This document shows positions 3-17,898 of a stretch of 36,902 nucleotides of DNA, piece by piece. The DNA lies in assembly GCA_026014545.1 (NCBI GenBank), contig JAOZIH010000011.1:1-36902 (forward strand), in the 5' to 3' direction. Source of the DNA: Candidatus Bathyarchaeota archaeon (GTDB lineage Archaea; Thermoproteota; Bathyarchaeia; Bathyarchaeales; Bathycorpusculaceae). Under the pieces are notes generated by a model. It was given only the letters and a program-made list of their open reading frames with translations, did not search any database and had not been told where the DNA came from. The stretch's first letter is position 1; each line of letters starts with the position of its first letter. A program made the translations under genes and the position numbers.

Positions 3-770
3 GTCTTCTGCCAGAAAGGCATTGACGACATGGTTCAGCACTTCTTGGCTAAAGAGGGCATAATGGCTGCTAGACGCATTAAGGAGTCTGACATGGAGAA
101 GCTGGCGCGTGCAACCGGCGGACGCATTGTTTCCGACCTGGAGGACTTGTCTGCAAAGGATCTTGGTCAAGCAGGTTTAGTTGAAGAGCGTAAAATCGGC
201 GAGGACAAGCTGATCTTCGTTGAGAAATGCAAGGATCCGCATTCAGTGGCTATTCTCCTGCGTGCAGGGCTGGAGCGGATGGTGGACGAGGCTGAAAGAG
301 CAATGACTGACGCTCTCTCAGTGGTTTCCGATGTTATCGAAAACAGCAAAATCGTTGCTGGCGGCGGCGCAATCGAAGTTGAAATTGCAAAAGAACTACG
401 CAGCTATGCACCAAAAGTCGGCGGTAGAGAGCAGCTTGCCATAGAAGCTTTCGCAGAGGCTGTTGAAGTGATACCAAAGACGCTGGCGGAAAACGCAGGA
501 TTAGAGCCAATAGACATAATCGTGGAACTCCGCGCGGCTCATGAGAAGGAAGATGGCAAATACAAGGGCATCAACGTTTTCACTGGTAAACTTCAAGACA
601 GCTTTGCGAACGGCGTTATTGAACCGGCAGTGGTTAAAGAGCAAGCTATTAAATCAGCCGCTGAATCAGCAGCCATGATATTACGCATAGACGATGTCAT
701 CGCTGCCTCAAAACCAAAAGAGGGCCCAGGTGGAAAGACGCCGCCAGGCGGTCCTGAAGGCGAAGAATAA
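3..770 (+). CDS. Thermosome (group II chaperonin) subunit, C-terminal part
   Basis: The window opens inside this gene; the open frame enters at base 3 and ends at a TAA. About 255 residues remain of a family usually near 545. The visible part holds a VFCQKGIDD segment, the apical and intermediate regions, the [15 protein letters not shown] segment typical of the second equatorial half, and the closing [10 protein letters not shown] stretch. The tail is Gly/Pro/Glu rich ([15 protein letters not shown]) in place of the usual GGM repeats. Thermosomes are cytosolic ATP-dependent double-ring folding machines, often built from two or three paralogues; which paralogue this is cannot be told. A T-rich stretch follows the stop. 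The family call is secure. Confidence 0.95.
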
Positions 771-898: not shown

Positions 899-954
899 CG
901 CGGGATAGACCCTCCTATAGGTTTCTGCAATGAACCACTAATAGCCGCCAAATA
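899..954 (-). repeat. Dispersed intergenic repeat, copy 1
   Basis: Read on the minus strand, this 56-nt stretch matches 23209..23263 on the plus strand except for one extra G and a few differences near the 3' end. It begins TATTTGGCGGCTATTAGTG, continues TTCATTGCAGAAACCTATAG, and ends in a small GGG/CCC hairpin. It sits between the convergent thermosome and DNA ligase genes, so it lies downstream of both. No coding potential is evident. Confidence 0.7.
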
Positions 955-1030
955 GGTTTGTCAAATTTGTCAGCCCTTAGACGCCACGCTTACAGTAATA
1001 GTCGCATAAAAGGGCGATTAGGCAATAGGT

Positions 1031-2725
1031 CTATTCGGTTTTGTATTTGCCCTTTTTAGCAAACTGTTGCTCATAAATGTGCTTGATTTTCTCGATTGTG
1101 TCTGCCTCTTCTGCTGTTTTGTCTTCTCTTATGCGGCTTATGCGTGCAAACCTAAGTGCCATGCCTGACTTGTATTTCGGGCTTTTCTGAATCTCGTTAT
1201 AGGTAACTTCAACTACGATGCGGGGAAGCACAAACACGCGATTGCGTTCCTCATGCACAGCCAGCGCTTTAAGTCGCTTGGTCATCTCAGCCATTTCTGC
1301 GTCAGTTAAACCCTTAAATGTCTTGCCTACGTTCAGAAACTCGCCAGTAACAGCATCCCGCGCAGCCAGATAATAATCAGAGAGCCATTCATGGCGACGC
1401 CCATAGCCGTATTCTGCGGCTGTTATCACCAAATCCAGCGGCTCCAGCACCGGCTTAATTTTGAACCAGCGCTTTCCGCGTGCTCCAGGCGTGTAAGGGC
1501 TGTCAAGCTTTTTCGCCATTAAACCCTCGTGTCCAGAGTCTATGGCTTCCTTCAAAAACGCCTCTGCTTCCTCCTTTCTGTCAGTGATAACTTGCTTAGT
1601 TAACGGTATTCCCCCTGCGTTTTCGGCTAATATCCTCCTGCGCTGCACGTACGGAAGGGAGATGAGGCTCTCCCCGTTAAGATAGAGCATATCAAACAAG
1701 TAAAGCGCCACAGGAATTTCTTCGGCAGTATCCTGTACTTCGCGAATTCGCTTAAATCTGCGCATCAAATGCTGAAACGGAATAGGACGGCCGCCATGGT
1801 CTACGGCTATAACTTCGCCCTCGAGTATAGCCTCGCTCGCGTTAACATTAGCCTTTACAGCTTTAACAACCTCGGGGAGACTACGCGTTACGTCGGTAAG
1901 CCTGCGGCTGAAAACACGCACGTCGCCGCCTCGCTTATGAATCTGAACCCGAGCGCCATCATATTTGTACTCAAATGCTGTTTTGCCGCCGTGCTGCGCC
2001 AGCACTTCAGCAACATCGTCGGCACTCTGCGCAAGCATTAGCTTCACAGGCCTAAAAACCTGAAAACCCAGCTGCTCCAATTGCGCCTTGCCGCCGACCT
2101 TTGCCATGGCAGCTACCTCAGCTATGTCGCCCAGCGTCATGCTTGCTTTCTGTACTGCTGCAAGCGGCACATTAAAAGCCAGTGCAACCGCCTGCTCCAT
2201 CAGACCTTCATGCATGCCAGTGCGCATTTCACCAATGAAAATCTTCACTAAATACTTAACTTCTACAGGTGATGCTTGGCTTAAAAGCGTCGTTATCAAT
2301 CGCTCTTTCTTTTCTCTCGAGCCTGCACCCGTAGCGCTGGCTATGGCGTCCAGTAATCGCCTAACTTCGAGAATAGTCAATGTCTCATCCTGCAGCAGCG
2401 TTTGCCTTTGCACGTTGGTTTTCTCGAAGAGTGCTTTCGCTGCGGCGCCAACATCGCCTGTATGTGCGAAAGCCTCGTGAAAAACGCTCCAGTCTACATC
2501 GGTTATTCGCTGAAGAACGCCGCTTAGAGTTGTCCAGCTTACATCTAGGGTTTTCTGGCTCCATTTCGGGAAAGCTCGCCCAAGAATCAAGGAAACGGCT
2601 GGCTCCACGTCCTCAGCGTCCAAGCTTTTCAAAAAGTCAGCGGCTATGGCTATTATTTCAAGTCGCTTTTTAGTAGCCTCTACCTTTTCGAGGAAGACTG
2701 CTAAAGACTTGAAAAGCGTGGCCAT
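1031..2725 (-). CDS. lig: ATP-dependent DNA ligase
   Basis: This enzyme seals DNA nicks through a lysine-AMP intermediate in replication and repair. The nucleotidyltransferase motif I, KYDGAR, is present with the adenylated lysine at about residue 254. Downstream are EGEVIA, the LFDMLYLNG and EGLMAKK motifs, and a C-terminal OB-fold region with WFKIKP. The N-terminal 200 residues match the DNA-binding domain of archaeal/eukaryotic ligase I. I chose the ATG at 2725 (564 aa, MATLFKSL...) because GAGGCAGAGG lies just upstream; an earlier in-frame ATG at 2746 adds seven residues but has no ribosome site. The stop is TAG. The gene converges on the thermosome gene. Confidence 0.95.
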   Translation of the reverse strand: MATLFKSLAVFLEKVEATKKRLEIIAIAADFLKSLDAEDVEPAVSLILGRAFPKWSQKTLDVSWTTLSGVLQRITDVDWSVFHEAFAHTGDVGAAAKALFEKTNVQRQTLLQDETLTILEVRRLLDAIASATGAGSREKKERLITTLLSQASPVEVKYLVKIFIGEMRTGMHEGLMEQAVALAFNVPLAAVQKASMTLGDIAEVAAMAKVGGKAQLEQLGFQVFRPVKLMLAQSADDVAEVLAQHGGKTAFEYKYDGARVQIHKRGGDVRVFSRRLTDVTRSLPEVVKAVKANVNASEAILEGEVIAVDHGGRPIPFQHLMRRFKRIREVQDTAEEIPVALYLFDMLYLNGESLISLPYVQRRRILAENAGGIPLTKQVITDRKEEAEAFLKEAIDSGHEGLMAKKLDSPYTPGARGKRWFKIKPVLEPLDLVITAAEYGYGRRHEWLSDYYLAARDAVTGEFLNVGKTFKGLTDAEMAEMTKRLKALAVHEERNRVFVLPRIVVEVTYNEIQKSPKYKSGMALRFARISRIREDKTAEEADTIEKIKHIYEQQFAKKGKYKTE

Positions 2726-2831
2726 AACCCTCTGCCTCAAAACCATGCTGCTAAATGGGCTAAGCTATTACTTAGCGATTTCAAAGTAAAAAAGGTGAAC
2801 GGTGGATGCTGCTAAGAAACGCGAAAAACTT

Positions 2832-3206
2832 TTAGAAGGTACTTTCTAGCTTTGTTTTAACCTCTTTAATCCGCTTATCCAGTTCTTCAACTTTCGCCGT
2901 GTTTCCTAGGGCTTTATAGCAGTCTCTTGCAAAGTCTAAAGCGCTCAAGCCGAAGCGATCATATCCCTTCTCAAAAGAAAGCTCAGCAGACTGCATAAAA
3001 TGCTCTGCGGCTTTCTCATACTCTTTCAAGCCGAAGCCGCACTCGCCAGCCTTGTAAAGCATAGTGGTAGCGTCAAAGAAGTTCTGCTTCTTCCGGTAAA
3101 GCTCTGCGGTTTTCAAGAAAAGCTCACGTGCCTCCGTAAACTTACCAGCGTCCAAGAGGTTATTTGCGTCCTTGTGCATCTTAACTGGATCTTCTTTTTC
3201 ACTCAT
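2832..3206 (-). CDS. Small TPR/alpha-SNAP-like helical repeat protein
   Basis: A 124-residue hydrophilic protein built almost entirely of amphipathic helix pairs with TPR-like spacing (AGKFTEARELFLKTAELYR, then EYEKAAEHFMQSAELSFEKG, then ALDFARDCYKALG). Such repeats mediate protein-protein contacts; the partner is unknown. The pattern resembles archaeal SNAP-like TPR proteins. I start at the ATG at 3206; a TTG three codons upstream is possible. It lies 105 bp below the ligase start, on the same strand, and is transcribed divergently from the threonine-synthase-like gene. There is no signal peptide or membrane segment. The fold is fairly sure and the function is not known. Confidence 0.8.
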   Translation of the reverse strand: MSEKEDPVKMHKDANNLLDAGKFTEARELFLKTAELYRKKQNFFDATTMLYKAGECGFGLKEYEKAAEHFMQSAELSFEKGYDRFGLSALDFARDCYKALGNTAKVEELDKRIKEVKTKLESTF

Positions 3207-3291
3207 GACATTCAACTCTTACGGCTATATCAAACAATGAGCCCCAATTTAGAGTTTCCTCTTTCCCGTGGTCTTAAAAGGAGAAAATGGC

Positions 3292-3302
3292 AAATATATA
3301 AC
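3292..3302 (+). promoter_or_regulatory. TATA box of the threonine-synthase-like gene
   Basis: AAATATATAAC is centred about 42 bp before the GTG start, so transcription would begin near 3322, just ahead of the AGGAGA ribosome site at 3324-3329. This gives a very short 5' leader and supports the GTG at 3339 as the start. Confidence 0.55.
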
Positions 3303-3338
3303 ACAAAAGCATGTGTGCCTCTTAGGAGACGGCATGAA

Positions 3339-4736
3339 GTGCTTAAGTGCATTCGATGCGGCGCAGAATTCCCGACCTACCCCTTAAGAAGTAACTGCGA
3401 AAAATGCGGGGGAATATTAGAGTACACTGGAGACGCCGTTAAAATTGCGGGAGTACAATTTTCTGGCTCTATGGGCTTCTGGAGATATAAGCCGCTGCTT
3501 CCATCTGTCCATAACACTGTAAGTTTAGGTGAGGGCGGAACACCCTTACACAAAGCTGAAAGATTAGCAAAGAATCTCCGTTTGAGAGAGCTTTACTTGA
3601 AAGATGAAACACGCAACCCTACCAATTCGTATAGAGACCGTGCTGCTGCCCTTCTGACATCTAATGCACTTGACAAAAAATTTGACACGTTGATATGCGC
3701 CTCAAATGGGAATATGGGCGCCTCATTGGCTGCTTACTCAGCGAAAGCAGGGTTAATCTGCCATGTTATTGTTCCAGAAATAGTTGATATGGGAAAGCTA
3801 GCACAAATGATTGCCTATGACGCGATCATCGAAAAATCCGGTGAAATTCTCGATGACGCAATACGCAGGGCCGTGGCTATGGCGGAGGAAACAGGCTGGT
3901 ACCAAGCCACAGCGGAATTGAACCCGCTTGTAATCGAAGCACAGAAAACGATTTCTTATGAAATCTGCGAGCAGTTCGGTGTTCCAGAATGGGTTTTAGT
4001 GCCCATGGGAAGCGGTGGCACAATTTATTCTATCTGGAAAGGCTTCAAAGAGCTAAAGCAATTGGGCATCGTTAATTTGTCTCCAAAAATTGTAGGCGTT
4101 CAACCGGAAGGATGCGCCGCCATAGTCGATGCGTTGGCTAAAGGCGCTTCAGAATCCGCGAAAATCCAGAAACCATCCACGCGGGCGCTCGCCGTTCTAG
4201 TGGCGAAGCCCTTGCAGAGCGAATTAGCTATAAAGGCAATCAAGGAATCAGATGGCTTGGCTTTAAAAGTTTCAGACTCTGAGATCCTAAGCGCAGAGCT
4301 GCAGATAGCTAAGACAGAAGGTGTTTTCGCTGAACCTGCAAGCGCTGCAACAATCGCTGCACTAAAAAAATTGGCCGAGGCGGAGAAAATCTCTGGGGAT
4401 AGCAGTGTCGTGTGTCTTATTACGGGTAGTGGACTTAAAGCAACTGATGTACTGCAAGCGCTTACTAAGAAGCAGAAGACCGCTGTTATAGGCTTAGAAA
4501 TAAGCACGAAAGAAAAAATCCTCAGGATTCTCAGCCAAAAAGACAGTTACGGTTATGATTTGTGGAAAAGCTTGGGGAAAACTATGACTCGCGCTGCTAT
4601 CTACCAGCATTTGAATGAGTTGACAGAGAGGGGATTGATTGTGGCTTACGAGAAGAGCGGGCGACGGTTCTTTCGTATATCGGAGCGTGGAAGGAAGGCT
4701 CTTGCGGCTATTGATGACTTAAAACTTTTAATTTAG
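3339..4736 (+). CDS. Threonine-synthase-like PLP-fold protein fused to a C-terminal winged helix
   Basis: A 465-residue protein. Residues 1-40 form a CxxC...CxxC zinc ribbon (CIRCGAEF, CEKCGG), as in archaeal threonine synthases. Residues about 60-385 are a fold-type II PLP domain: NPTNSYRDR, SNGNMGASLAAYSA, the phosphate loop GSGGTIYS and a final ITGSGLK. Threonine synthase converts O-phosphohomoserine to threonine, but the residue expected to be the PLP lysine (NPTGSFKDR in the family) is Arg99 here, codon AGA. Residues about 386-465 form a PadR-like winged helix (EKILRILSQKDSYGYDLWKS, then RAAIYQHLNELTERGL). The start is GTG with AGGAGA nine bases upstream; the open frame extends to 3000 but overlaps the TPR gene and looks non-coding there. 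It may be an active ThrC, a divergent paralogue, or a PLP-sensing regulator. Confidence 0.85.
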   Translation: MLKCIRCGAEFPTYPLRSNCEKCGGILEYTGDAVKIAGVQFSGSMGFWRYKPLLPSVHNTVSLGEGGTPLHKAERLAKNLRLRELYLKDETRNPTNSYRDRAAALLTSNALDKKFDTLICASNGNMGASLAAYSAKAGLICHVIVPEIVDMGKLAQMIAYDAIIEKSGEILDDAIRRAVAMAEETGWYQATAELNPLVIEAQKTISYEICEQFGVPEWVLVPMGSGGTIYSIWKGFKELKQLGIVNLSPKIVGVQPEGCAAIVDALAKGASESAKIQKPSTRALAVLVAKPLQSELAIKAIKESDGLALKVSDSEILSAELQIAKTEGVFAEPASAATIAALKKLAEAEKISGDSSVVCLITGSGLKATDVLQALTKKQKTAVIGLEISTKEKILRILSQKDSYGYDLWKSLGKTMTRAAIYQHLNELTERGLIVAYEKSGRRFFRISERGRKALAAIDDLKLLI

Positions 4737-4750
4737 GCGGCAAAAGTTTA

Positions 4751-4774
4751 ATAGTATAGTTATAACTATACTAT
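4751..4774. promoter_or_regulatory. Perfect 24-bp palindrome, candidate operator
   Basis: The half-site ATAGTATAGTTA is followed at once by its exact reverse complement. The palindrome lies 14 bp after the stop of the winged-helix fusion and 14 bp before the ATG of the ECF S component. Its centre is about 26 bp upstream of that ATG, where a TATA box would sit for leaderless transcription, so a bound dimer would block TBP/TFB. No T-run follows, which argues against a terminator. Confidence 0.6.
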
Positions 4775-4788
4775 GCCGGTGTGCTTAC

Positions 4789-5322
4789 ATGAACAAGCAA
4801 GCCGCCTTACGTACGCCTCTTAAAATAGCCCTATCCGCAGTTCTCGGCGCACTTGCCGCTGCCGTAACAATTTCATTCGTAATACCCATACCCGCAACAA
4901 GCGGCTACTTCAACCTTGGCGAAGCAATAGTCTACATATCAGCGCTCATCTTCGGACCTTTCGTGGGCACCTTTACAGGAGCCAGCATAGCAATAGCAGA
5001 CATTCTTGTTCCCGGAGCAGCCCAGTTTGCCCCTGGCACGCTGCCGATCAAAGGTCTCGAAGGAGCTATCGTCGGCATTCTGTTCAAAAAGCTACATAAG
5101 CACATCGCGAACACTGGTTTATGTGCCTCCATTTCTGTCGTGGTCGGCGGTTTAGAAATGATAGCAGGCTACTTCATCTACGAACAACTATTTCTTAGCT
5201 ATCCAATGGAAGCCGCCTTAGTGGAGGTCCCGTTTAATATTGTGCAAATGGTTATTGGCTTGATCATAGCAGTGCCAGTGATGTTCATGGTTCAGCGTGT
5301 TTTCCCACAACTTAAAAGCTAG
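4789..5322 (+). CDS. ECF transporter S component (substrate-binding membrane protein)
   Basis: A 177-residue protein with about six hydrophobic segments and almost no soluble domain. The FNLGEAIVYISALIFGPFVG segment, followed by a GAS..IADIL loop, is typical of S components of energy-coupling factor importers, which bind a vitamin or cofactor precursor and work with EcfA/EcfT. No EcfA or EcfT gene is in the window, so a shared (group II) energizing module is likely. The substrate cannot be read from sequence. The ATG follows a GGTG at spacing eight. The gene is preceded by the palindrome and followed after 29 bp by the HypE-like gene, with which it probably forms an operon. Confidence 0.8.
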   Translation: MNKQAALRTPLKIALSAVLGALAAAVTISFVIPIPATSGYFNLGEAIVYISALIFGPFVGTFTGASIAIADILVPGAAQFAPGTLPIKGLEGAIVGILFKKLHKHIANTGLCASISVVVGGLEMIAGYFIYEQLFLSYPMEAALVEVPFNIVQMVIGLIIAVPVMFMVQRVFPQLKS

Positions 5323-5351
5323 ACCTGCACCATTCTAGCAAGTGAGCTAAA

Positions 5352-6359
5352 ATGAAGCTTCCACCCGGCAAAATCCCCGTTGACATTCTGAAAGAAGTTG
5401 TTTTCAAAAACTTAGGCGCAACCCGCAAAGAAGTCATCATAGGCCCCGCCGCTGGAATCGATGGCGCAGTCTTAGACATAGGCGATAAATCACTGATAGC
5501 CTCAATGGACCCAATCACCGGCGCAGTGGAGCGCATAGGCTGGCTAGCCGTCAACGTGAACGCTAATGACGTAGCCACTTTCGGCGTTGACCCCGCCTTT
5601 CTATTCTCATGTATGCTGCTGCCAGAAAACGCGGACAAAGCGCTCGTTGAAGCCATAAGCAGCCAGATGAACGCGGCTGCAAAAGACCTCGGCATCGCCA
5701 TAGTAGGCGGACACTGCGAATCCACACCAAGCTTAACAAACCCTATAGTTGTAGGCTGCATAATTGGCTTAACAGCGAAAGGCTGCTATGTCACCGCAGG
5801 AGGCGCAAAAGCCGACGACAAGCTCATATTAACGAAAAGCGCGGGAATAGAAGGCACTGCTATACTCGCCACTGACAGAGAGCCTATGCTCAAGAAAGCC
5901 ATGGACGCGCAGATGCTTCAGGCGGCAAAGAGCTTCTACAACCAAATAAGCGTGGTAAAAGACGCGTTAATCGCCTATCGGACAGGCGGCGTCCACGCCA
6001 TGCATGATCCAACCGAGGGCGGCGTAGCAGGCGGCATCCACGAGATGGCAGATGCCTCAAATCTAGGCGTAAAAATCTTCAGAGAAGCAGTTCCAGTTCA
6101 ACCTGAGACAGCGCGAATCTGCGGCATCTTCCAGATTGACCCGCTGCAGTTAATCAGCTCAGGCGCGCTGCTCATTGCCGCAGAACCAGAAAGCGCCGAC
6201 GCAATAATCTGCAGCCTAAAGCGCGAGCAGATTCCAGCCGCAGTCATTGGCGAATTCACAGAAAACACGCGACAAAGAGTGCTCATAAAGGAAGACGGCG
6301 TGGCGGAGGCGCTACCGCGGCCGTTATCAGATCATCTTTGGGTTGCGTTGAGGCGTTAA
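5352..6359 (+). CDS. AIR-synthase/HypE-like protein lacking the PRIC tail
   Basis: A 335-residue member of the PurM/HypE/ThiL/SelD fold family. HypE-like motifs include GIDGAVLDIGD, SMDPITGAVERIGWLAVNVN (HypE has DPITG...IGWLAVHVNAND), NANDVATFGVDP, IVGGHCE and HDPTEGGVAGGIHEMA. HypE makes the thiocyanate group of [NiFe]-hydrogenase from a C-terminal PRIC cysteine; this protein ends in ...HLWVALRR and has no such cysteine, so it should not do that chemistry. It may be an ATP-dependent phosphotransferase of unknown substrate, perhaps tied to the cofactor imported by the preceding S component (inference). Its last 33 bp overlap the 3' end of the convergent glycosyltransferase gene. Confidence 0.85.
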   Translation: MKLPPGKIPVDILKEVVFKNLGATRKEVIIGPAAGIDGAVLDIGDKSLIASMDPITGAVERIGWLAVNVNANDVATFGVDPAFLFSCMLLPENADKALVEAISSQMNAAAKDLGIAIVGGHCESTPSLTNPIVVGCIIGLTAKGCYVTAGGAKADDKLILTKSAGIEGTAILATDREPMLKKAMDAQMLQAAKSFYNQISVVKDALIAYRTGGVHAMHDPTEGGVAGGIHEMADASNLGVKIFREAVPVQPETARICGIFQIDPLQLISSGALLIAAEPESADAIICSLKREQIPAAVIGEFTENTRQRVLIKEDGVAEALPRPLSDHLWVALRR

Positions 6360-7106
6360 GAGATTTCTGGCGCCGTGGATGGAAAGCTGTAGAAACCACT
6401 GGATCATAAAAATCGGGTAATAAAAGATGTAAGAGTACAGATGCGAATAAAGCACGCCGCATCTAAAGTCCACAATAGCCTGCGAGACGCCATTCTGCAG
6501 GCTCCAGTTCGCTGGGGGTTTGAAATGCAAACAGAAAATGTCGTCGCCAACCACTATTTTGTAACCTTTCGCTTTTATCCAATTGATTATGTATGCGTCT
6601 TCGTAAGCATGCAACTGCTCAGGAATATGGATGTCCTCTACAGCCTCGCGACGAATAAGTGTATCATGCATCCCGCCTCTTAGACTAAAACATTGCCTGG
6701 CGACAAGGCTCTGCAACTTTAAAATGCGTTTATCTTTCATGTTAGGGATAACGTCGATGTTTACGCCCCAGACTGCGCCGACGTCGGCGGCTAAATGTCG
6801 CTCAGCATTTCTGAACCAGCTTCTGCTGAGGATTACATCGCTATCGACAAACATGAACCAGTCGGTGGTAATCTGCCGCAGTCCTTTTTCTCTTGCACGT
6901 GCTCTTGAGCCTTCCACGGCTATAACCTTAACATTCCCATATTTCTTGTTGAATTCTTCGACAATTTTCAGGGTGCGGTCAGTTGAAAAACCATCCACTA
7001 CTATCAAGTTCTTTACAGGCACATTTCGATAAACAGATGCCAAGCACCTATCAAGCAAGTGCTCGCTGTTCTTCGTAAGCACCACAACATCTATCGACTG
7101 CACCAT
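6327..7106 (-). CDS. Family 2 glycosyltransferase, paralogue A
   Basis: A 259-residue GT-A fold enzyme. The N-terminus has the nucleotide-sugar fold (VVVLTKNSEHLLDRCLASVY, DGFSTDRT) and a VDSDV DxD-type metal motif near residue 94. A hydrophobic C-terminal segment (YSYIFYYPIFMIQWFLQL) could attach it to the membrane. It probably transfers a sugar in surface glycan or protein glycosylation. It is a clear paralogue of the gene at 7220..7960, with which it shares a 54-nt stretch differing at one base. The two lie in tandem 113 bp apart. Its end overlaps the HypE-like gene by 33 bp. Confidence 0.88.
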   Translation of the reverse strand: MVQSIDVVVLTKNSEHLLDRCLASVYRNVPVKNLIVVDGFSTDRTLKIVEEFNKKYGNVKVIAVEGSRARAREKGLRQITTDWFMFVDSDVILSRSWFRNAERHLAADVGAVWGVNIDVIPNMKDKRILKLQSLVARQCFSLRGGMHDTLIRREAVEDIHIPEQLHAYEDAYIINWIKAKGYKIVVGDDIFCLHFKPPANWSLQNGVSQAIVDFRCGVLYSHLYSYIFYYPIFMIQWFLQLSIHGARNLLTPQRNPKMI

Positions 7107-7219
7107 TGTACCACTTCATGCTTCTTCTTTTGAAAGTCCACTTGATAAACGGTAATGTATGAAGCCAATTAGAAAATAAGAGTTTACCCAGATTCATCCT
7201 AAAACAGGCAGCGGAAACG

Positions 7220-7960
7220 CTACCTGCGCCGTTGGTTCTTCCTTTTGATAAAAAGTTGATAAAGCGAATATGCAGTGTAAAAGCCGTATGCAAGTGTTAA
7301 TTTAGCCAGCAAAGTTAGTTTACCAGCGCTGATTGCATCGGATATTATGCTTAAGCTTCCGCGAAGAGTCCAGACGCTTTCAGGGCGATAATGAATGCAG
7401 AAGGGATCATAACATGCAACCAGCTTGTAGCCTTTCCGCGTTATCCAATCCTTAATGTAAGCATCCTCGAAAACATGAAGATTCTTTGGGATTTCTATGT
7501 CTCTAACCGCTTCTGTGCGGATAAGCGTATCATGTGTTCCGCCCCTGATGTCAAATATTTTCCGTGTTATCCATAAAAACAGCTTAAGAATCATGGAGCT
7601 TTTGATGGTAGACCAAACTTCGATACCCCAGACTGCGCCGACGTCGGCGGCTAAATGTCGCTCAGCCTTTCTGAACCAGTCTTCGCTTAGAACTACATCA
7701 CTGTCAACGAACATGAACCATTCTGTTTCCACGTGGCTTATGCCCTTCTGCCTTGCTGTGGCGCGATTTCCCTTGTCTTGAAGCAGCAGGACGTTTCCAT
7801 GCTTACTATGAAACTCCTGTAGTATATCCAATGTTTCATCAGTTGAGTATCCATCAATAATGATTAGGCGGTTGACTGGAACATTGCGATAAACAGATTC
7901 AAGGCATTCTCTAAGCATTCTTTCGCTATTTTTTGTAATTACTACCACATCAACAAGCAT
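7220..7960 (-). CDS. Family 2 glycosyltransferase, paralogue B
   Basis: A 246-residue GT2 enzyme with the same architecture as its downstream neighbour: VVVITKNSERMLRECLESVY, DGYSTDET, VDSDVVLSEDWF, then RGGTHDTLIRTEAV and EDAYIKDW. The acceptor-side half and the C-terminus differ more than the N-terminus, suggesting different acceptors. The tail has one moderately hydrophobic segment followed by a basic KRKNQRRR end. The donor sugar is unknown. The gene is divergent from the radical SAM gene at 8194 and is probably the first of the two-gene GT unit. Confidence 0.88.
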   Translation of the reverse strand: MLVDVVVITKNSERMLRECLESVYRNVPVNRLIIIDGYSTDETLDILQEFHSKHGNVLLLQDKGNRATARQKGISHVETEWFMFVDSDVVLSEDWFRKAERHLAADVGAVWGIEVWSTIKSSMILKLFLWITRKIFDIRGGTHDTLIRTEAVRDIEIPKNLHVFEDAYIKDWITRKGYKLVACYDPFCIHYRPESVWTLRGSLSIISDAISAGKLTLLAKLTLAYGFYTAYSLYQLFIKRKNQRRR

Positions 7961-8125
7961 ATTCTCTATTCAATGTCCATCGCCTAATTAAGATTCATGG
8001 CAAAAAGCATGGAGCCAAAGCGTAAACCCGAGTTATCCGCATTCAACCGGCAGCAGCTAAACTCAAAAGAGGATAATGCTGCTCCTTTGCCGTTTCATTT
8101 AAATTTACCAAATTTGCCCTTATGA

Positions 8126-8135
8126 CTTATATAAG
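8126..8135 (+). promoter_or_regulatory. TATA box of the radical SAM gene
   Basis: CTTATATAAG, itself a palindrome, lies about 63 bp before the ATG at 8194. Expected transcription start is near 8156, giving a leader of about 35-40 nt. It is the clearest TATA element in the divergent intergenic region 7961-8193. Confidence 0.5.
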
Positions 8136-8193
8136 TGGAAACTAGGACTATTAACCCAGACAACAAGTACATGCACGGTGCTTATAGTTGAAT

Positions 8194-9225
8194 ATGCGTT
8201 TACAAAAGGCTTCTAGAATCGCAATTAGCGCACTTACACCAAATAGACCTCATCATGCGCAGTGGATGATTACGCGTAAATGCAATTATCACTGCAGAGG
8301 CTGCAACGTCTGGAACGAACAAGCCCATGAGGAATTAACAGCCGAGGAGATAAAACGCGGAATGGACATACTAAAGAGCCTCGGCATCGTGGAGCTTGTA
8401 ATCTCAGGCGGAGACCCACTTTTAAGAGATGATGCCGCTGAAATAATCGACTACGCTTCGAAGCTTTTTGTAACCACAGTATATGACAACGGGAGCATGG
8501 CAGCGAAGAAAATTGAGGCTCTGCGAAACGTAGATTTCGTGGCAATTTCAATAGACAGCTTAGACGAGGCAAAAAATGACTACATAAAAGGCGTTCCAGG
8601 CTCATGGAGAAGAGCCATGGAAACCGTCGAAGCGCTGCATAAAGCGGGAATAAAAGTAAGCGTTACGCCTACAATTTCACAGTTAAACCTTTACGAAATC
8701 TTGGACATCACAAATTACTTCACCCATAAAGGGATCCCAGTTTGGTATTGCCTCTACTCCTATGATGCAAGTGAAGATAAAAAGCAACTTTTCAGAATTG
8801 GCAAAGCAAATGACGAGTTCATTATACGAGATAATCAGGCAATGGTAAAGCTCTGCGACTCTCTTATGGAGATGAAAAAAAAGAATAATAGAATTCTAAT
8901 GACAGACGAACTATTGAAGACGCTTAGAACACTATTTTCCGAAGGCAAAAGAACATGGCGCTGCCGCGCGCTTCGGAACTTTTTAGTCATAGACCATCTG
9001 GGCAGAATCGCCGGCTGTCATGTCCACAATTTTGCTGGCTCACTATTTGATTTGCCTAGACTGTGGAACAGCCAAAAATTCAAAACGCTACGTGAAATTT
9101 ACATTAAATGCACGCAATGCTCTTACTTATGCTACATCTTCTATTCGATTCACGGGAGCCCCTATGGTCATCTCATGTTAGCTAAGGATCAATGGAAAAA
9201 TGCAAAGCTGCTTTTAGAAAAATAG
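8194..9225 (+). CDS. Radical SAM protein, SPASM-like C-terminus
   Basis: A 343-residue radical SAM enzyme. The [4Fe-4S]/SAM site is CNYHCRGC (CxxxCxxC) around residue 30, followed by ISGGDPLLRDD, the usual GGEP-like SAM-binding motif. The C-terminal part carries further cysteines (WRCRALRN, AGCHVH, CTQCSYLC) in a SPASM-like arrangement that could hold an auxiliary cluster. Its position among glycosyltransferases suggests modification of a glycan, lipid or peptide of the envelope (inference); the substrate is unknown. The start is taken at the ATG at 8194; a TTG two codons earlier is in frame. It converges on the small membrane gene at 9229 with 3 bp between stops. Confidence 0.87.
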   Translation: MRLQKASRIAISALTPNRPHHAQWMITRKCNYHCRGCNVWNEQAHEELTAEEIKRGMDILKSLGIVELVISGGDPLLRDDAAEIIDYASKLFVTTVYDNGSMAAKKIEALRNVDFVAISIDSLDEAKNDYIKGVPGSWRRAMETVEALHKAGIKVSVTPTISQLNLYEILDITNYFTHKGIPVWYCLYSYDASEDKKQLFRIGKANDEFIIRDNQAMVKLCDSLMEMKKKNNRILMTDELLKTLRTLFSEGKRTWRCRALRNFLVIDHLGRIAGCHVHNFAGSLFDLPRLWNSQKFKTLREIYIKCTQCSYLCYIFYSIHGSPYGHLMLAKDQWKNAKLLLEK

Positions 9226-9228
9226 TTG

Positions 9229-9495
9229 CTAAACATCCAAATTTGGTAATGCTTCAAGCGCCTTTGCTAGGGAGTGCATTATTGAAGCGTCAATTTTCTG
9301 CTCTTTCTCAAGGTCTCCAATTCGAATGTGATACATCAAATATGCATTTACTACAGGCGTGTTTTCCATTATCAGACGTGGACCCGTGTCTCGTGGTTTT
9401 TTCAGCTCGATAAATGCGGGTAGAAATGTGATGAAAATTAGAAGCGGTATTGCCACGCTGAATAAGACTAAAGTCTGAGTCAGATTCAGAATCAT
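9229..9495 (-). CDS. Small single-span membrane protein next to the processive GT2
   Basis: An 88-residue protein: one strong N-terminal transmembrane helix (VLFSVAIPLLIFITFLPAF) and a soluble tail of about 55 residues. The last 27 residues resemble the whole of the 34-residue microprotein encoded at 15666..15770: E.EQK.D..I...LA and a final LPNL are shared. It starts 23 bp after the stop of the GT2 gene on the same strand, so it is probably the last gene of that operon and may be an accessory subunit. No known family is recognised. Confidence 0.6.
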   Translation of the reverse strand: MILNLTQTLVLFSVAIPLLIFITFLPAFIELKKPRDTGPRLIMENTPVVNAYLMYHIRIGDLEKEQKIDASIMHSLAKALEALPNLDV

Positions 9496-9518
9496 GGCAA
9501 TCTTTTGAGCAATATTGC

Positions 9519-10801
9519 TTAATTTCCAATATAACGCTTTTCGTCGCCTAAGTGATGCGTTTTAGCCCAGCAGACATGTTTTTTCCCAAGGATTTTAGCA
9601 GCAAGAAGATCCCAAAATGCCTTTGTACATATAAAAGTATTATACAAGTACAAGAAAAGTAGCAGAGGAATCAGCCACTGAATCCGCGTTCTGCCATCTA
9701 GATAAGCTCCTATTCCAACCTCAAAGAATGGTGCAAAATTTCCTACAAAGCTATAGAAAGATAGTGGCACTAAAATCCAGAGTGCCACAACCAATTGGGA
9801 AGGTTCAAGAAGAATAAGCAATGTGCCTGCACAAAATGATATAAGCGTTATAATGGGCATAAAATACACATGTAGAAGAAGAATGCCGTCAATTTTTTCT
9901 TTCAAACTTAATTTTTTGCTTTTTAATACGCGGAGCACATTTTTGAAGCAGACTTGCATGTGCCCTTGTGCCCATCTGTGCCTCTGTCGCCAGTACGCCC
10001 TCCAGTCAGCAAATGCCTCCTCATAGCATTCCGCGTCAGCTACATAGCGAACCTTAAAGCCAGCGAGATAAACTTGAAACGTCAAGTCCGTATCTTCAGC
10101 CAACATTGCTTCGTCAAAGCCGCCTAGCGCTTCTATAATCCTCCGTCTGAAGCCTCCCACGGTACCGCCGAATTGTGGTATGAGACCTAGTGCGACGCGG
10201 GCTTCTTGGTCGATTCGGTAGCCGCCGATTCGCTCTAACGTGACCAAGCGAGTTACAAGGCTTTGCGCTTCGTTCAAGACAACTGGGCGTCCCTGCACGG
10301 CGCCAACCTCAGGGTCGGCAAACTCCTTAACGAGTTTCTTCACGCTGTCTTTTGGGGGTAATAATCTGCATCGAAGCAGAGCACAATTTCGCCTGTTGCG
10401 TGCTTTAAGCCGAAATTCAAAGCGGAAGCTTTCCCTCTGCCGCCATCCTCTTTACCTCGATGCAGCACAGTAATGTGCTTGCAGCGTTTGGAATATTCTT
10501 CAGCGATTTGTCCAGTGCGGTCAGATGATGCGTCATCAATGACTATTATTTGGAGCTTATCCTGCGGATAAGCTAACTCGGTCATTCGTTGCAGCAGTCG
10601 TTCTATAACGTTTTCTTCATTGTGCGCTGGGATCAGTATCGAAACGGTTGGTTCATAGTTCAAGATTGCAGCGAGCGCGTCGGTTCGGTGTTTTTTGATT
10701 TTTCTTAAAACGGTTAGTGTGAAAATGTAATGTCTAACAAGATACGCAGTTATGAGTGCCGCTGTGAGCAAAAAGATAGCTTTCAAGAATTCGGTGATCA
10801 A
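9519..10801 (-). pseudogene. Processive-type membrane GT2, one frameshift
   Basis: Two overlapping open frames (10340..10801 and 9519..10343) together encode one protein of about 427 residues. Its parts in order are an N-terminal membrane helix, the GT-A domain (IDDASSDRTGQIAEEYSKRC, LCFDADYYP), then AEDTDLTFQ and the QRHRW motif of processive synthases, and about four C-terminal membrane helices. This resembles poly-N-acetylglucosamine or cellulose synthase-like enzymes that polymerise and export a glycan. The frame breaks after DADYYP at a run of five G on the plus strand (10354-10358); one more base restores YYPPKDSVKKL. The TTG start overlaps the TGA stop of the upstream membrane gene, so the two are translationally coupled. 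It could be a sequence error or a recent inactivation. Confidence 0.8.
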
Positions 10802-11183
10802 GCTTTCACCGCTTCGCGCATATTTTCAGGCGTGAAAAAGGATAGGCTTACTGACCAGAAGGATATGATCCACATGAAATTGAAGATGGGCTGCAGCAAT
10901 GCGTAAAAAGCGGTGAATATTTCTCCGAAAAACTCGGTGCCAGTGGCGGCGAAAGGTTTAGGGAAAAGTTCCAAGCCAAGCCTATAATGTTGCCTAAGGC
11001 GAGCATGCTCATCTTTCTACTGAGCGATCCATTCAATTGGAAAGTGAGGGAGAGAAAAAGTAAATTGAAAATCAAAAGAGCAATTGTGGATTCTATGTTA
11101 ATGAAGCGGAGAGAAGCTATCAAGCATAGCGCGATTACTTCCAAAAATAAAGCTGTGACTATGTGCGTACTTCTAAATTTCAT
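10798..11183 (-). pseudogene. Small four-helix membrane protein, one frameshift
   Basis: The ATG at 11183 follows a strong AAGGAGG ribosome site. The first ~72 codons encode three hydrophobic segments ending ...IIGLAWNF. The frame then leaves at a run of four A on the plus strand (10964-10967). Adding one base gives a continuous C-terminus: FFPKPFAATGTEFFGEIFTA, FYALLQPIFNFMWIISFW and a closing FFTPENMREAVKA, 128 residues in all. That stop (TGA) overlaps the TTG start of the GT2 gene, which argues that the shifted frame is the true ancestral one. It is probably a membrane partner of the glycan synthase; no family is recognised. As deposited, the unshifted frame stops at 10848. Confidence 0.7.
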
Positions 11184-11315
11184 TTTCCCCGCCCTCCTTG
11201 TTGCATGATATGCGGTTTGTAAAGGTTGTTCCCAAAAGTTAATTCTATAGAGGGATATTCGGTTTTAAAATTTACGTATTCCTGTGTTTAAATTGGAAGA
11301 ACCACTAGAGCTTGC

Positions 11316-11924
11316 CTATGGATTTTCAGTTTTGAGAATAATATTATCCATAACCATGCAGAGAACTTGAAAAACTTCGCTTGCATCTAAGTTGTCGGTG
11401 TCCAAAATTAGGTGGAACGGCTCGAAATCTTCGCCCAGCCTAAAACCGTATAGTTTCTCGTATATCGCTTTTGTTGTTGCCTCTTTCTCCCTCAGCACTT
11501 GCCGTGCCTCTTCGACGGAGATCCTGTCTCTTTTGGCGATTCTCCACGCCCGTTTTTCTTCAGAAGCAGCCAGCCATATCTTGAAGCCAGTTTTAAGCAG
11601 CCAAGGCATAGCCCAACTGTCTAAAATAACGTTCCCTTGCTGCGCGTACTGCAAGAGTTTCTCGTCCACGGTCTTGTCAAATTGCGGGTTGCTTTCCCGT
11701 TTCTTTAAAAAGCTGAGGCCTTCAGGGCTCTCCCACCAGCCGCGGGTGGACGGATTGTATCCTTCGTCTTTCGCTAACTCCTTCAGTGCATCTCCGCCTG
11801 AATAATAGCGCAGCCCGTATTTCTGCGCGAGCTTCTTGGCCAAGGTGCTTTTTCCAGTTCCAGCCATACCTGAAATGCAAACCACAATTTTTTTCTCAGT
11901 GGTGGTTTTCCCGTTTCTGCTCAT
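11316..11924 (-). CDS. cmk: Archaeal-type cytidylate kinase
   Basis: A 202-residue P-loop kinase. Walker A is GMAGTGKST near residue 19; the core has the CMK-like YYSGGDALKELA segment, a lid-like RDRISVEEARQVLREKE region and a closing LILDTDNLDASEV strand-helix. It phosphorylates CMP/dCMP to the diphosphate in pyrimidine salvage. In archaea this gene sits in the secY ribosomal-protein cluster after DUF106, as it does here, which supports the call over other small P-loop kinases. The DUF106 gene ends 26 bp upstream on the same strand. Confidence 0.85.
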   Translation of the reverse strand: MSRNGKTTTEKKIVVCISGMAGTGKSTLAKKLAQKYGLRYYSGGDALKELAKDEGYNPSTRGWWESPEGLSFLKKRESNPQFDKTVDEKLLQYAQQGNVILDSWAMPWLLKTGFKIWLAASEEKRAWRIAKRDRISVEEARQVLREKEATTKAIYEKLYGFRLGEDFEPFHLILDTDNLDASEVFQVLCMVMDNIILKTENP

Positions 11925-11950
11925 GGTGTCTGCTCAACCATGCATAGTGT

Positions 11951-12406
11951 TTATTCTATGGGCGTTATGCCTATTACGCGGGAGGCAAGAGTTCCGAAGA
12001 AGAAGGAGCATATCATGTACCAAATAAGAACTGGAATCCCGCCGAAGCCTGGAACATAAGCTACGGCGTTTCCTCCGTAAACTGGAATCAGGAAAACCCA
12101 CCAGATGATTACGTAGCTGAAGGAGATGGGAAGAAGAACTGTCTGAGGCTTCATCATTTTAGCCTGCATGTTTCTTATCTGCGATTCTCTCTTTTTCAGT
12201 TTCTCAATTTGCTTTGTGTCGTTAGCGCGCATGGCTTGCAGCAGCTGCGATTGATACTCAGCCGTTTCCCTTCTCATTGCCTTGTACTCTTCCCAGCCGC
12301 ACATGCGATTTATCAGCAATCGCTGGATTGTCATGTTAAGAAAGGAAACAGCAAATGCAATAATCATTACAATAATTGTGGCTAACGGAATATCTGTAAT
12401 GAGCAT
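11951..12406 (-). CDS. DUF106/EMC3-like (archaeal YidC-like, Ylp1) membrane protein
   Basis: A 151-residue protein with an N-terminal membrane helix (residues about 5-25), a charged coiled-coil hairpin (AEYQSQLLQAMRANDTKQIE...KKRESQIRNMQAKMMKP), and two further membrane helices (about 93-113 and 122-142). This is the layout of the archaeal DUF106 family, part of the Oxa1/YidC/EMC3 superfamily that helps insert membrane proteins. It usually lies next to secY, as its role would suggest. Here it is separated from secY by a 2.5-kb surface-protein gene but stays coupled to cmk. AAGAGA precedes the ATG. Confidence 0.87.
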   Translation of the reverse strand: MLITDIPLATIIVMIIAFAVSFLNMTIQRLLINRMCGWEEYKAMRRETAEYQSQLLQAMRANDTKQIEKLKKRESQIRNMQAKMMKPQTVLLPISFSYVIIWWVFLIPVYGGNAVAYVPGFGGIPVLIWYMICSFFFGTLASRVIGITPIE

Positions 12407-12923
12407 GATTCTCTTTTTCTCCTTGCGCTGAAACGCCCAGGGTCTTTTAGCCTATTTTTCTTTTCTTGTTAATAACCATTTTTGCTCCTGAAAACCGCAA
12501 ATCCTTCTTTTGGCTCTTAAAACAGAATAATTGTGCTATTCAAGAAATTTTGTTTCATAAAAAGTTGACATGGTACTTCGACTACGTAGGCGTCAACTAT
12601 GTAGCGGAGGGTTTACAGAGACTTCGAACAGGCCAAATAAAGGAGAAAAGGGAAACGCGGTTGCCGCAAAGCAAAACTGCTATTTGCTGCTTTCACGTCC
12701 GAAGCCTTCTCAGCCCCTCTATCACCATGTCTGGCAGCGTTGCATGCGCTGGGTTTGCTGGGGCTTTGGGTGCCAAACTAAAGGAGAGATATAGGAGAAG
12801 AGAAGAATGGCAATCTGCTGCTGCAGATAAGCCGTATTCCCAAAGCCCTCTCAGCCCTCCACGCTTGGACAGTCAAATAACCCAAAAAGGGGGGGAATTG
12901 AGTTTTGCGTGTTCTCAGCATAG
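12407..12923. other. 517-bp intergenic region with an imperfect tandem repeat
   Basis: The only structure seen is two diverged copies of a unit of about 110-120 nt, starting near 12631 and 12771. Each opens GCCAAA(C)TAAAGGAGA, runs through a purine-rich stretch and a CTGCT-rich stretch, and closes with GCC(T/C)TCTCAGCCC. In the second copy a strong ribosome-site-like AGGAG precedes a seven-codon frame MAICCCR; the first copy has TAICCF at the matching place. Longer plus-strand frames here have odd composition and no family signature, so I do not call a gene. It may be a decayed duplication. Confidence 0.45.
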
Positions 12924-15455: not shown

Positions 15456-15665
15456 GCCCTCTTTATTCTCCTTTATTTTTTGCGAGAGCAACGTCTGCAT
15501 GATTGAGCTATAGTACATTTTTCAGAATCTTACCAGAATTATGTCCAAATTATACCAAAAAGGAAGCTGTGAACTTGAAAATCTTCTGGAGCCTCTTTGC
15601 GTATGTTAGCAAAAACAACTCTCAAAATAAACGCAGACCTTTAACAAAAAGTAAGGATTTGCGGC

Positions 15666-15770
15666 TTAATCCTCTAAATTAGGCAAAAATGCGATAACCT
15701 CAGCCAGCCGCACAACTATCTCGTAATCAAACTTTTGCTCTAGCTCTATGTTCATAAGTGGAAGTTCCAT
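15666..15770 (-). CDS. Candidate leaderless 34-residue microprotein
   Basis: A short frame starting MELPLMNIELEQKF and ending FLPNLED. Its C-terminal 27 residues align without gaps to the tail of the 88-residue membrane protein at 9229..9495, with 12 identities by eye (E, EQK, D, I, LA, LPNL). A TATA-like CTATAAAAG (15792-15800) is centred 26 bp upstream of the ATG at 15770, the distance expected for leaderless mRNA. An ATG four codons earlier is too close to that box. No transmembrane part is present. It could be a real small protein or a truncated relic of a larger gene. Confidence 0.4.
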   Translation of the reverse strand: MELPLMNIELEQKFDYEIVVRLAEVIAFLPNLED

Positions 15771-15791
15771 GACCGTATTCATTAGTGGAAT

Positions 15792-15834
15792 CTTTTATAG
15801 CGGTTCCTATAGCTCAAACTTCGAACTTCGAAGT
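15792..15834 (-). promoter_or_regulatory. TATA box and 17-nt palindrome upstream of the microgene
   Basis: CTATAAAAG on the minus strand (15792-15800) lies 17 bp below an almost perfect palindrome, ACTTCGAA-C-TTCGAAGT (15818-15834): eight-base arms around one central base. A palindrome just upstream of a TATA/BRE site is the usual place for an archaeal activator or repressor. The protein that would bind is unknown. Confidence 0.4.
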
Positions 15835-16040
15835 AACAAGGCCTTCTCCGCAGAAATTTTTGACATTTTTAATTAATTTTTAGTTATTTGATTATGCCAA
15901 AGTTGCCGTTTTAGAGTTTACGTGTATGGTAAAAACATGGAGAGTGCATCACTCCACGGTAATTTTCGAAGTTTTGCCACATAGCTGCTGAAGAATAAAA
16001 TAAAGGCGAATTAGGGTTCCGTAATTTATCTATCGTTTAT

Positions 16041-17438
16041 TTATTCGCCCAAGATTCTTCTGAATGCCGGGAACATCTCAGCTGCTCTCTCGCGCATTAA
16101 CAGCTCATAGTACTGATAGATTATGCCGACTGCCAGCAGTATACCTGTTCCTGAGCCGAAGACACCGAGGAAATCGGAAATTCCAGCGACTAGGCCTACA
16201 ACTATGCCGCCAAGAATCGTGACCACTGGAATATAACGTCTAAGGATGGATTCAACAGGTTTTTCTGACCGCCTGTAGCCGGGGATTTGCATTCCAGAGT
16301 CAACAAGCTGTTTCGCCACTCTTGACGGGCCGAGACCGCCGACTTCAAGCCAAATCAGCGAGAAGACCGCGCAGAAACTGACGAGAATAGCCAAGTAGAT
16401 GGCAGCGCGTATTGGGTCAGCTGCCACGTCATGCACGCTTTGAGGCGCCGTCACATAATAGGCTAAGCCGCTTATGGGCTGATTGTTGGTGGCGTTATAT
16501 TGGCCGAGAAAGTCGATTAAAATGTTCTGGCCGGGTGCTGGGCGTCCCTGCGTGCTCCAGATAAGCTGGGAGAAGAAGTACACGTTGGCGAAAAGCGCAG
16601 ACGCGAAGATGACTGGGAGGTTAGAGACGTAAAGTAGCTTAATTGGGTAGCGGCTGCGGAAGCCCTTGTAGCCCGCGTAAGTCAGTGGAAGCTCAACTCT
16701 GATGCCTTCCAAGTAAATTATCACAAGGAATGTCACTATCGTTGCAATGAACCCGATTAGTGAGGGATAAGCGCCCGCGCCTATCACCCAATCCACTAAT
16801 GTTTGGTTACCCCGCAGAAGCATGTCAAGTGAACCCACGAACAATCCTGTTCCAGGGTTAAACGTTTGCCAGAGGATGTTCTGGGCGACGCCGGCCATGA
16901 TGAAGAGGCTGATTCCGCTGCCGAGACCCCAGCCTTTTTGGATAAGCTCGTCCAGCAGCATCACGATTATTCCGGCGCCTAAAAGCTGCAGAAATATCAC
17001 GATGGTTGTCGGCCCGGAGAGTGCGCCGTACATGCCGCTGATTATGTACGCTGAGGCTTGAATGCCCGTTAGGAGAATTGAGAAGAATTTGCTTGCGGTC
17101 GTGAATAGGCCTCTGTCTTCAGGATTACTCATGTCACATTGGATAATGGCAGAGCCGACCAGCAGCTGCAGAATTAAGCCCGCGGTGACTATGGGGCCTA
17201 TGCCAAGCTCCATTAGGGTGCCGCGGTTTGAGGCGAAAATTACTCTTAGAGGCGCAAATTGTTCTTTGACGCCGGCGGGAATGCCGTAAAGCGAAATCTC
17301 TGACATGATTAAATAGACTATAAGGACCAGGGCGGTCCAGAAAATTTTCTCGTTGAAGCTTACTTTGCGTTCCGGCGCCTTTATTTCAGGCATCACTCTT
17401 CCGAGTGGTTTAAACAGGTTTAGGAATCTTCCCGCCAT
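16041..17438 (-). CDS. secY: Preprotein translocase subunit SecY
   Basis: A 465-residue protein with ten predicted membrane helices, the central pore subunit of the Sec translocon in the cytoplasmic membrane. Recognisable are the N-terminal PEIKAPERKVSFNEKIFWTA, the plug-region IGPIVTAGLILQLLVGSAII, and cytosolic loops YAGYKGFRSRYPIKLLYVSN and GMQIPGYRRSEKPVESILRR. Length fits archaeal SecY. AGGAG lies upstream of the ATG, 15 bp after rpl15, with which it is surely cotranscribed. In many archaea adk and DUF106 follow at once; here a PQQ surface-protein gene follows and no adk is present. Confidence 0.97.
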   Translation of the reverse strand: MAGRFLNLFKPLGRVMPEIKAPERKVSFNEKIFWTALVLIVYLIMSEISLYGIPAGVKEQFAPLRVIFASNRGTLMELGIGPIVTAGLILQLLVGSAIIQCDMSNPEDRGLFTTASKFFSILLTGIQASAYIISGMYGALSGPTTIVIFLQLLGAGIIVMLLDELIQKGWGLGSGISLFIMAGVAQNILWQTFNPGTGLFVGSLDMLLRGNQTLVDWVIGAGAYPSLIGFIATIVTFLVIIYLEGIRVELPLTYAGYKGFRSRYPIKLLYVSNLPVIFASALFANVYFFSQLIWSTQGRPAPGQNILIDFLGQYNATNNQPISGLAYYVTAPQSVHDVAADPIRAAIYLAILVSFCAVFSLIWLEVGGLGPSRVAKQLVDSGMQIPGYRRSEKPVESILRRYIPVVTILGGIVVGLVAGISDFLGVFGSGTGILLAVGIIYQYYELLMRERAAEMFPAFRRILGE

Positions 17439-17453
17439 CGGCTAATGTTACTC

Positions 17454-17897: not shown

Positions 17898-17898
17898 A

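What the first reader, a model, noticed from the sequence alone, without database searches (positions are those of the whole stretch)
899..954. 55-nt dispersed repeat in two convergent intergenic regions, 22 kb apart (copy 1)
Copy 1 (minus strand) and copy 2 (23209..23263, plus strand) share blocks of 19 and 20 identical nt and both end in a short G/C hairpin whose stem is kept although its bases differ. Both lie in the 3' ends of convergent gene pairs. This suggests a small mobile element, a 3'-UTR element, or a family of structured RNAs. Shorter GCAGAAACC matches occur at 881-889 and 26306-26314.
Basis: seen in the sequence. Interest (0 to 1): 0.5.

Follow-up and report, generated by a model that had tools for sequence, protein, structure and literature searches.

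The report
Repeat marking archaeal chromosome shuffle points
A DNA repeat of about 50 letters, scattered some 50 times between the genes of a Bathyarchaeota archaeon, sits where its chromosome has been cut and re-joined compared with a close relative, so it looks like a recombination site that reshuffles blocks of genes.

Summary
The repeat is real: one of 53 copies in this Bathyarchaeota genome. A sequence model finds it in 27 of 251 genomes of the class, all in one family. Copies are intergenic, only mildly enriched between convergent genes, share no fold and match no Rfam family. The new result is that copies are synteny breakpoints. In two same-genus pairs, genes upstream of a copy match genes upstream of one copy in the relative, while genes downstream match genes downstream of a different copy: 14 of 16 copies with both sides matched (G001/G000) and 13 of 15 (G062/G014). 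Junctions holding a copy are broken in 15 of 18 mapped cases, against 3 of 66 other junctions with gaps of at least 100 bp. Both window copies are such breakpoints. In-register exchange between copies explains this. Misassembly is unlikely: in genus g14 partner copies share exact runs of only 9-24 nt. The enzyme is unknown: serine recombinases are absent and dif and attC hallmarks are missing. A single-contig relative gave only two usable comparisons, both unshuffled.

The parts
901..955 (-). Copy 1 of the repeat (element orientation 955 to 901). Upstream side faces the DNA ligase gene, downstream side faces the chaperonin gene.
   Evidence: Model match E 4.5e-16. Breakpoint against G001: its upstream side (window 1040-10138) continues in G001 C81 past the copy at 25832, where the other side is G000 C36:60051-73087.
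23207..23260 (+). Copy 2 of the repeat. Upstream side faces an alpha/beta hydrolase gene, downstream side faces a Memo-like gene.
   Evidence: Model match E 1.5e-16. Breakpoint against G001: its downstream side (window 23209-31815) is joined in G001 C46 at the copy at 11135 to G000 C36:47455-58457, which ends 1.3 kb short of the G000 copy C36:59784.
956..23206 (.). Gene block between the two copies; the copies are inverted to each other with their upstream sides facing inward, so exchange between them would invert this block (inference).
   Evidence: Orientation of the copies.
30..770 (+). Chaperonin (Cpn60_TCP1) gene end on the downstream side of copy 1
   Evidence: Pfam PF00118 E 4.5e-82. 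An 85% identical protein lies on the same side and strand of a copy in another genus (G002 C35:16647, locus L111).
1031..2746 (-). ATP-dependent DNA ligase gene on the upstream side of copy 1
   Evidence: Pfam PF01068 E 4.9e-60.
22374..23201 (+). Alpha/beta hydrolase gene on the upstream side of copy 2
   Evidence: Pfam PF00561 E 1e-15.
23372..24277 (-). Memo-like gene on the downstream side of copy 2
   Evidence: Pfam PF01875 E 1.9e-88.

Best explanation
The repeat is a dispersed family of short intergenic DNA sites at which copies recombine with one another in register. Exchange between two copies joins the upstream side of one to the downstream side of the other; between inverted copies that inverts the block between them, between direct copies it excises or inserts it. 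Over time this permutes gene blocks of about 25-30 kb while order inside blocks stays. SHOWN: the family, its intergenic place, breakpoints at copies, and conservation of side and strand across the breaks. INFERRED: that the exchange takes place inside the element, and that the element itself attracts it, most likely through an element-specific break or synapsis followed by exchange with, or copying from, another copy. The enzyme is not identified. The confidence given is for the full statement with an active element; for exchange at the copies by whatever means it is about 0.88.
For: Flank genes keep side and strand in 66 of 67 matches (G001/G000) and 83 of 85 (G062/G014); of copies with both sides matched, 14 of 16 and 13 of 15 join flanks of two different copies. 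Junctions with a copy broken 15 of 18, others 3 of 178; against other gaps of at least 100 bp 3 of 66, Fisher 4e-11; on the better sampled G000 contigs 10 of 13 against 3 of 159. Second genus: 12 of 14 against 0 of 39, Fisher 3e-10. Two G062 copies carry reciprocal flank combinations of two G014 copies. For an active element: core conserved across genera with 10 invariant bases TGCAGAAACC by construction of the own-genome set and still recognisable elsewhere; copies more evenly spaced than random in G000 (P 1e-4) and less clearly in G014 (P 0.03); orthologous copies no more alike than random cross-genome pairs, which hints at copying between sites (three pairs).
Against: No recombinase tracks the element in what I examined. 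No dif-like dyad and no attC boxes. Even spacing is absent in G062. In genus g19 the single-contig genome G163 gave 2 of 24 test copies matched on both sides, both unshuffled, 4 with one distant one-sided hit and 18 with none, so shuffling is not shown there. G063 has no copy though its congener G019 has 42, so the system is dispensable. Two of the three element-free breaks remain unexplained by the model.
Confidence: 0.5

Rival explanations
1. Passive homologous recombination: the element is an ordinary, perhaps selfish, intergenic repeat, and the cell's general recombination or annealing machinery uses its copies as portable homology. The element itself does nothing special.
For: Explains side and strand conservation and breakpoints equally well. 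G000 partner copies share exact runs of 12-53 nt, and some G062 pairs share up to 112 nt. No dedicated enzyme was found. Patchy presence within genera suits a dispensable repeat.
Against: The core is only about 50 nt and in g14 partner copies share 9-24 exact nt today, little for general recombination. Longer repeats exist, for example paralogous genes in the window 75-81% alike over several hundred nt, yet 15 of 18 sampled breaks are at copies. From memory, genomes with hundreds of REP repeats keep their gene order.
Confidence: 0.38
2. Assembly artefact: draft assemblies misjoin contigs at the repeat, so flanks appear swapped although real chromosomes are colinear.
For: G000, G001, G014 and G062 are drafts of 41, about 140, 110 and 50 contigs. 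A misjoin at a repeat would also keep side and strand. In G000 some copies share up to 109 nt with another copy, in G062 18 of 861 pairs share 40 nt or more. The only comparison with a single-contig genome showed two unshuffled copies.
Against: At the 13 shuffled G062 junctions the two G014 partner copies share only 9-24 exact nt. It would have to affect 27 of 31 junctions in two genus pairs.
Confidence: 0.07
3. Co-location without exchange: breaks and repeats both favour the same intergenic spots, or a mobile repeat inserts at fresh breaks.
For: Copies are intergenic and mildly enriched between convergent genes. At one place G001 has a degenerate copy where G000 has an unrelated 1.78-kb stretch and no copy.
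Against: Side and strand would then be random; they are kept in 66 of 67 and 83 of 85 matches. Other gaps of at least 100 bp are broken in only 3 of 66 cases.
Confidence: 0.05

Closest known systems
dif/pdif modules of Acinetobacter (XerC/D sites; PMC12907356, abstract and outline seen)
   Same: Gene modules bounded by repeated short sites change partners; occurs on chromosomes as well as plasmids according to that abstract.
   Different: Those sites are about 28 bp with two inverted arms and a 6-bp spacer (description of dif in PMC8371274 passages); this consensus has no such dyad, and blocks are about 25-30 kb of what look like ordinary chromosomal genes.
Integron attC sites and archaeal integrons (PMC9668308, passages seen)
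   Same: Repeated sites next to genes through which DNA is shuffled; archaeal attCs are more alike within than between genomes.
   Different: attC clusters are defined by spacing under 4 kb; here copies are on average 24-32 kb apart, the R boxes as I recall them are missing from the consensus, and the copies are not in cassette arrays.
Integrase-driven chromosomal inversions in Thermococcales (PMC8371274, passages seen)
   Same: Archaeal chromosomes inverted by recombination between separated identical segments, one route using a tyrosine recombinase.
   Different: That recombination needs long identical segments (as short as 104 bp) and no fixed site; here one conserved site of about 50 nt is used over and over.
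REP/BIME and other dispersed bacterial intergenic repeats (recalled; PMC2817692 seen only as a listing)
   Same: Short, intergenic, many copies, both orientations.
   Different: REPs are palindromic; this core has no conserved fold. REPs are not, to my knowledge, the main breakpoints of gene order.

Membership tests
Xer/dif-type site | Two 11-nt inverted arms around a 6-nt spacer | tested here: not met
   Best 6 of 11 pairs in both consensus sequences; 186 of 300 and 266 of 300 shuffles do as well. Consensus only, not each copy.
Xer/dif-type site | Single copy per chromosome | tested here: not met
   53 copies.
Integron attC | RYYYAAC / GTTRRRY boxes (recalled) | tested here: not met
   Absent on both strands of the two consensus sequences.
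[quoted passage not shown]
   Mean gaps 32, 27.5 and 24.5 kb in G000, G014 and G062; few gaps under 4 kb.
Serine-recombinase att site | A serine recombinase (PF00239) in the genome | tested here: not met
   0 matches in G000, G001, G002, G014, G019, G025 and G062; 5 of 40 family genomes have one.
Tyrosine-recombinase site | A tyrosine recombinase that tracks the site | tested here: inconclusive
   PF00589 in 36 of 40 family genomes. The recombinases compared are diverse; the family shared by G000, G001, G002, G019 and G025 also occurs in copy-free G007.
Structured RNA / Rfam family | Conserved secondary structure or an Rfam match | tested here: not met
   No consensus fold in 42 copies; no Rfam match on the element in the window or in 11 further loci.
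CRISPR repeat | Regular array with short spacers | tested here: not met
   Copies are kb to tens of kb apart apart from occasional close pairs.
MITE / transposable repeat | Empty sites and target-site duplications | tested here: inconclusive
   Inside colinear blocks 2 of 2 G000 copies have a G001 counterpart; one degenerate G001 copy sits where G000 has other DNA. No clean empty site seen; duplications not tested.
REP/RAYT system | Y1 transposase (RAYT) partner | not tested
   No search left for PF01797.

The most novel reading that the evidence does not exclude
A dedicated chromosome-shuffling system: a cellular or domesticated enzyme acts on about 50 conserved intergenic sites to exchange and invert chromosomal blocks, much as integrons shuffle cassettes but at the scale of a whole archaeal chromosome, and copying between sites keeps them alike.
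Probability: 0.35. Interest if true: 0.92.

Novelty: new variant of a known kind. Interest (0 to 1): 0.75.

Why it matters
What makes gene order change in archaea is an open question. Here one short conserved site accounts for 15 of the 18 breaks seen in a sample of two congeneric genomes and for all 12 seen in a partial sample of a second pair. That makes the cause of rearrangement testable, gives a DNA bait for a binding or cutting protein, and suggests that comparing the two sides of any dispersed repeat across drafts can reveal such sites. My searches found no report of this element or of such a system in Bathyarchaeota (open-licence PubMed Central papers only).

Tried and rejected
Structured RNA: no fold, no Rfam match on the element. 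3'-UTR or convergent-only element: 36 of 49 classifiable copies are not convergent and orientation is mixed. Integron attC and dif: not met. Virus-borne element: 0 exact matches to a 22-mer in viral contigs; divergent copies are not excluded. Serine recombinase: absent. Recombinase gene beside copies: I noted 8 tyrosine recombinase genes within about 1.3 kb of copies in G062, G014 and G000 (note, from the lists), but the six loci read had different genes in between, so dropped. Crossover mapping inside the element: not possible because copies change too much within genomes. Closed-genome test with G163: 31 of its 46 matches had flanks in hand, too little overlap. Even spacing as a rule: not in G062.

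Rows dropped and biases: 8 of 50 exact TGCAGAAACC hits were judged chance and left out of the alignment, so the core is invariant there by construction. Flanks were compared for 27 of 30 G001 matches, 62 of 67 G014 and 42 of 77 G062 matches (the rest weak or not fetched) and 26 of 29 G002 matches. The 20 G001 stretches were picked because they carry copies, and the G000 side held flanks of copies from contigs otherwise not fetched, which favours seeing breaks at copies; hence the restricted count. The G014 side was sampled around copies, so breaks elsewhere in that pair would mostly show as unmapped. Blastn gave some hits on the wrong side or strand, which I take as paralogs or overlapping flanks. 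Genes come from my own codon-usage caller, not a published gene finder.

Full report
1. THE OBSERVATION. In element orientation copy 1 is 955-901 on the minus strand and copy 2 is 23207-23260 on the plus strand. Both lie in convergent gaps, copy 1 between a chaperonin and a DNA ligase gene, copy 2 between an alpha/beta hydrolase and a Memo-like gene.

2. THE FAMILY. The genome has 50 exact TGCAGAAACC sites against 1 for the reversed control. By eye 42 of the 50 are the repeat and 8 are chance. A sequence-only model built from the 42 finds 53 copies in the 1.86-Mb genome, the weakest at E 3e-6. Consensus: CATATTTGGCG, two variable bases, TATTAG, a variable block, TTCATTGCAGAAACCTATAGAGGG, then a diffuse edge. 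A few copies are close pairs. The 24-mer TTCATTGCAGAAACCTATAGRGGG occurs in 21 stretches of the genome collection, all titled Candidatus Bathyarchaeota. In 60 relatives the model finds 30 copies in G001 (same genus), 29 in G002, 67 in G014, 42 in G019 and at least 92 in G025 (the number scored), 1-3 in seven others, two of these outside the family with weak scores, and none in the rest. At E 1e-7 it is in 27 of 251 genomes of the class, 9 of 106 genera, all in the window's own family. Presence is patchy within genera: G019 has 42, its congener G063 none. A 22-mer gave no match in viral contigs.

3. WHAT IT IS NOT. The 42 sequences share no fold (2 pairs, none changed on both sides), and Rfam has no match on the element. 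In genus g14 a tail with an inverted repeat of the kind TTGGCG/CGCCAA follows the core: 61 of 100 copies with a readable core passed my tail filter, with pairing kept in many but not all. Fifty of 53 own copies overlap no predicted ORF, although 87% of the sampled sequence is coding. Convergent gaps hold 13 of 49 classifiable copies, above their share (131 of 763 junctions), but most copies lie elsewhere.

4. BREAKPOINTS. I compared genes flanking copies between genomes in element orientation. G001 against G000: upstream flanks match upstream flanks and downstream match downstream, but usually of different G000 copies. Counted on proteins, 66 of 67 matches keep side and strand; of 16 G001 copies with both sides matched, 14 join flanks of two different G000 copies and 2 keep one. 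Two G062 copies carry the reciprocal flank combinations of two G014 copies. Between genera the association is weaker: same side and strand in 29 of 47 (G014/G000), 8 of 16 (G002/G000), 5 of 8 (G002/G001) and 6 of 13 (G014/G002), and no copy had both sides matched. In G002 a copy has the chaperonin gene on the same side and strand as window copy 1.

5. CONTROLS. In 20 G001 stretches (329 kb, chosen because they carry copies) mapped to the G000 sequence in hand, junctions with a copy were broken in 15 of 18 mapped cases and other junctions in 3 of 178; 4 and 131 were unmapped. Limited to G000 contigs C33 (whole), C34 and C36 (in part) and C37 (the window) the figures are 10 of 13 and 3 of 159, Fisher 1.6e-11, with 9 and 150 unmapped. 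Limited to gaps of at least 100 bp the control is 3 of 66, Fisher 4e-11. In G062/G014 it is 12 of 14 against 0 of 39, Fisher 3e-10, with 25 and 78 unmapped; there a break away from copies would mostly show as unmapped. One of the three element-free breaks lies where flanks of two G000 copies meet without a copy in G001; one lies in a 1.7-kb stretch that by eye ends in a tRNA-like sequence (not tested); one is unexplained. Of the three unbroken copies, one is a degenerate G001 copy where G000 has no copy but 1.78 kb of other DNA. Both window copies are breakpoints against G001: C81:25832 for copy 1 and C46:11135 for copy 2.

6. ARTEFACT? A misjoin at a repeat would also keep side and strand. 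But at the 13 shuffled G062 junctions the two G014 partner copies share exact runs of only 9-24 nt; over all G062 pairs the median is 19, though 18 of 861 share 40 nt or more. Joining at such short runs is not expected of an assembler (my knowledge). G000 partners share 12-53 nt, so single junctions there could be wrong. The test with a single-contig genome was weak: G163 is one contig of 2.73 Mb with 46 matches. Of 24 test copies from four congeners, 2 matched both sides and were unshuffled, 4 had one distant one-sided hit and 18 matched nothing. Shuffling in that genus is therefore not shown, and turnover of copies is possible.

7. MECHANISM. Shown: breaks at copies, in register, side and strand kept. 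Inferred: exchange inside the element. The enzyme is open. Serine recombinases are absent from seven copy-rich genomes. Tyrosine recombinases are common (36 of 40), and none of those I compared tracks the element. The consensus has no dif-like dyad and no attC boxes. Orthologous copies are no more alike than random cross-genome pairs (0.87, 0.80 and 0.89 for three pairs against means of 0.84 and 0.81), which hints at copying between sites; the signal is mild. That would fit break repair from another copy better than simple conservative exchange. Passive homologous recombination remains nearly as likely. Spacing is more even than random in G000, less so in G014 and not in G062.

8. KNOWN SYSTEMS. 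It works like dif modules or integron cassettes in that blocks change partners at repeated sites (PMC12907356 abstract and outline; PMC9668308 passages), and like integrase-driven inversions in Thermococcales (PMC8371274 passages). It fails the site definitions of dif and attC that I could test. I found no paper on it.

9. VERDICT. Whether the repeat drives the shuffling or only lends homology is the question to settle.

Noticed in passing
window 12924-15518 (-) and 32075-34582 (+): Two paralogous genes of 864 and 835 aa with PQQ/BamB-like matches form inverted repeats 75-81% alike over stretches of up to 461 nt.
   Followed up: no
window 6327-7106 (-) and 7220-7960 (-): Neighbouring family 2 glycosyltransferase genes sharing a 101-nt stretch at 86% identity.
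   Followed up: no
G014 C86:827-3282: Three tyrosine recombinase domains in a row within 2.5 kb.
   Followed up: no
L247 (G000 C33:451228-453006) against G001 C51:15882-16042: G000 has about 1.78 kb of unrelated DNA where G001 has a short gap with a degenerate copy of the repeat.
   Followed up: partly
G019 versus G063; genus g12 (G133, G142, G143, G146, G148, G154 versus copy-free members): Copy number runs from none to dozens inside single genera, a natural comparison for finding genes linked to the repeat.
   Followed up: no
L305:69-176 (-): A match to the tmRNA family below its gathering score (33.2 against 47 bits) in archaeal DNA; probably something else.
   Followed up: no
G014 and G062 copies: A tail with an inverted repeat of the kind TTGGCG-8 nt-CGCCAA follows the core; in several copies both arms change together (TTGACG/CGTCAA).
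   Followed up: partly
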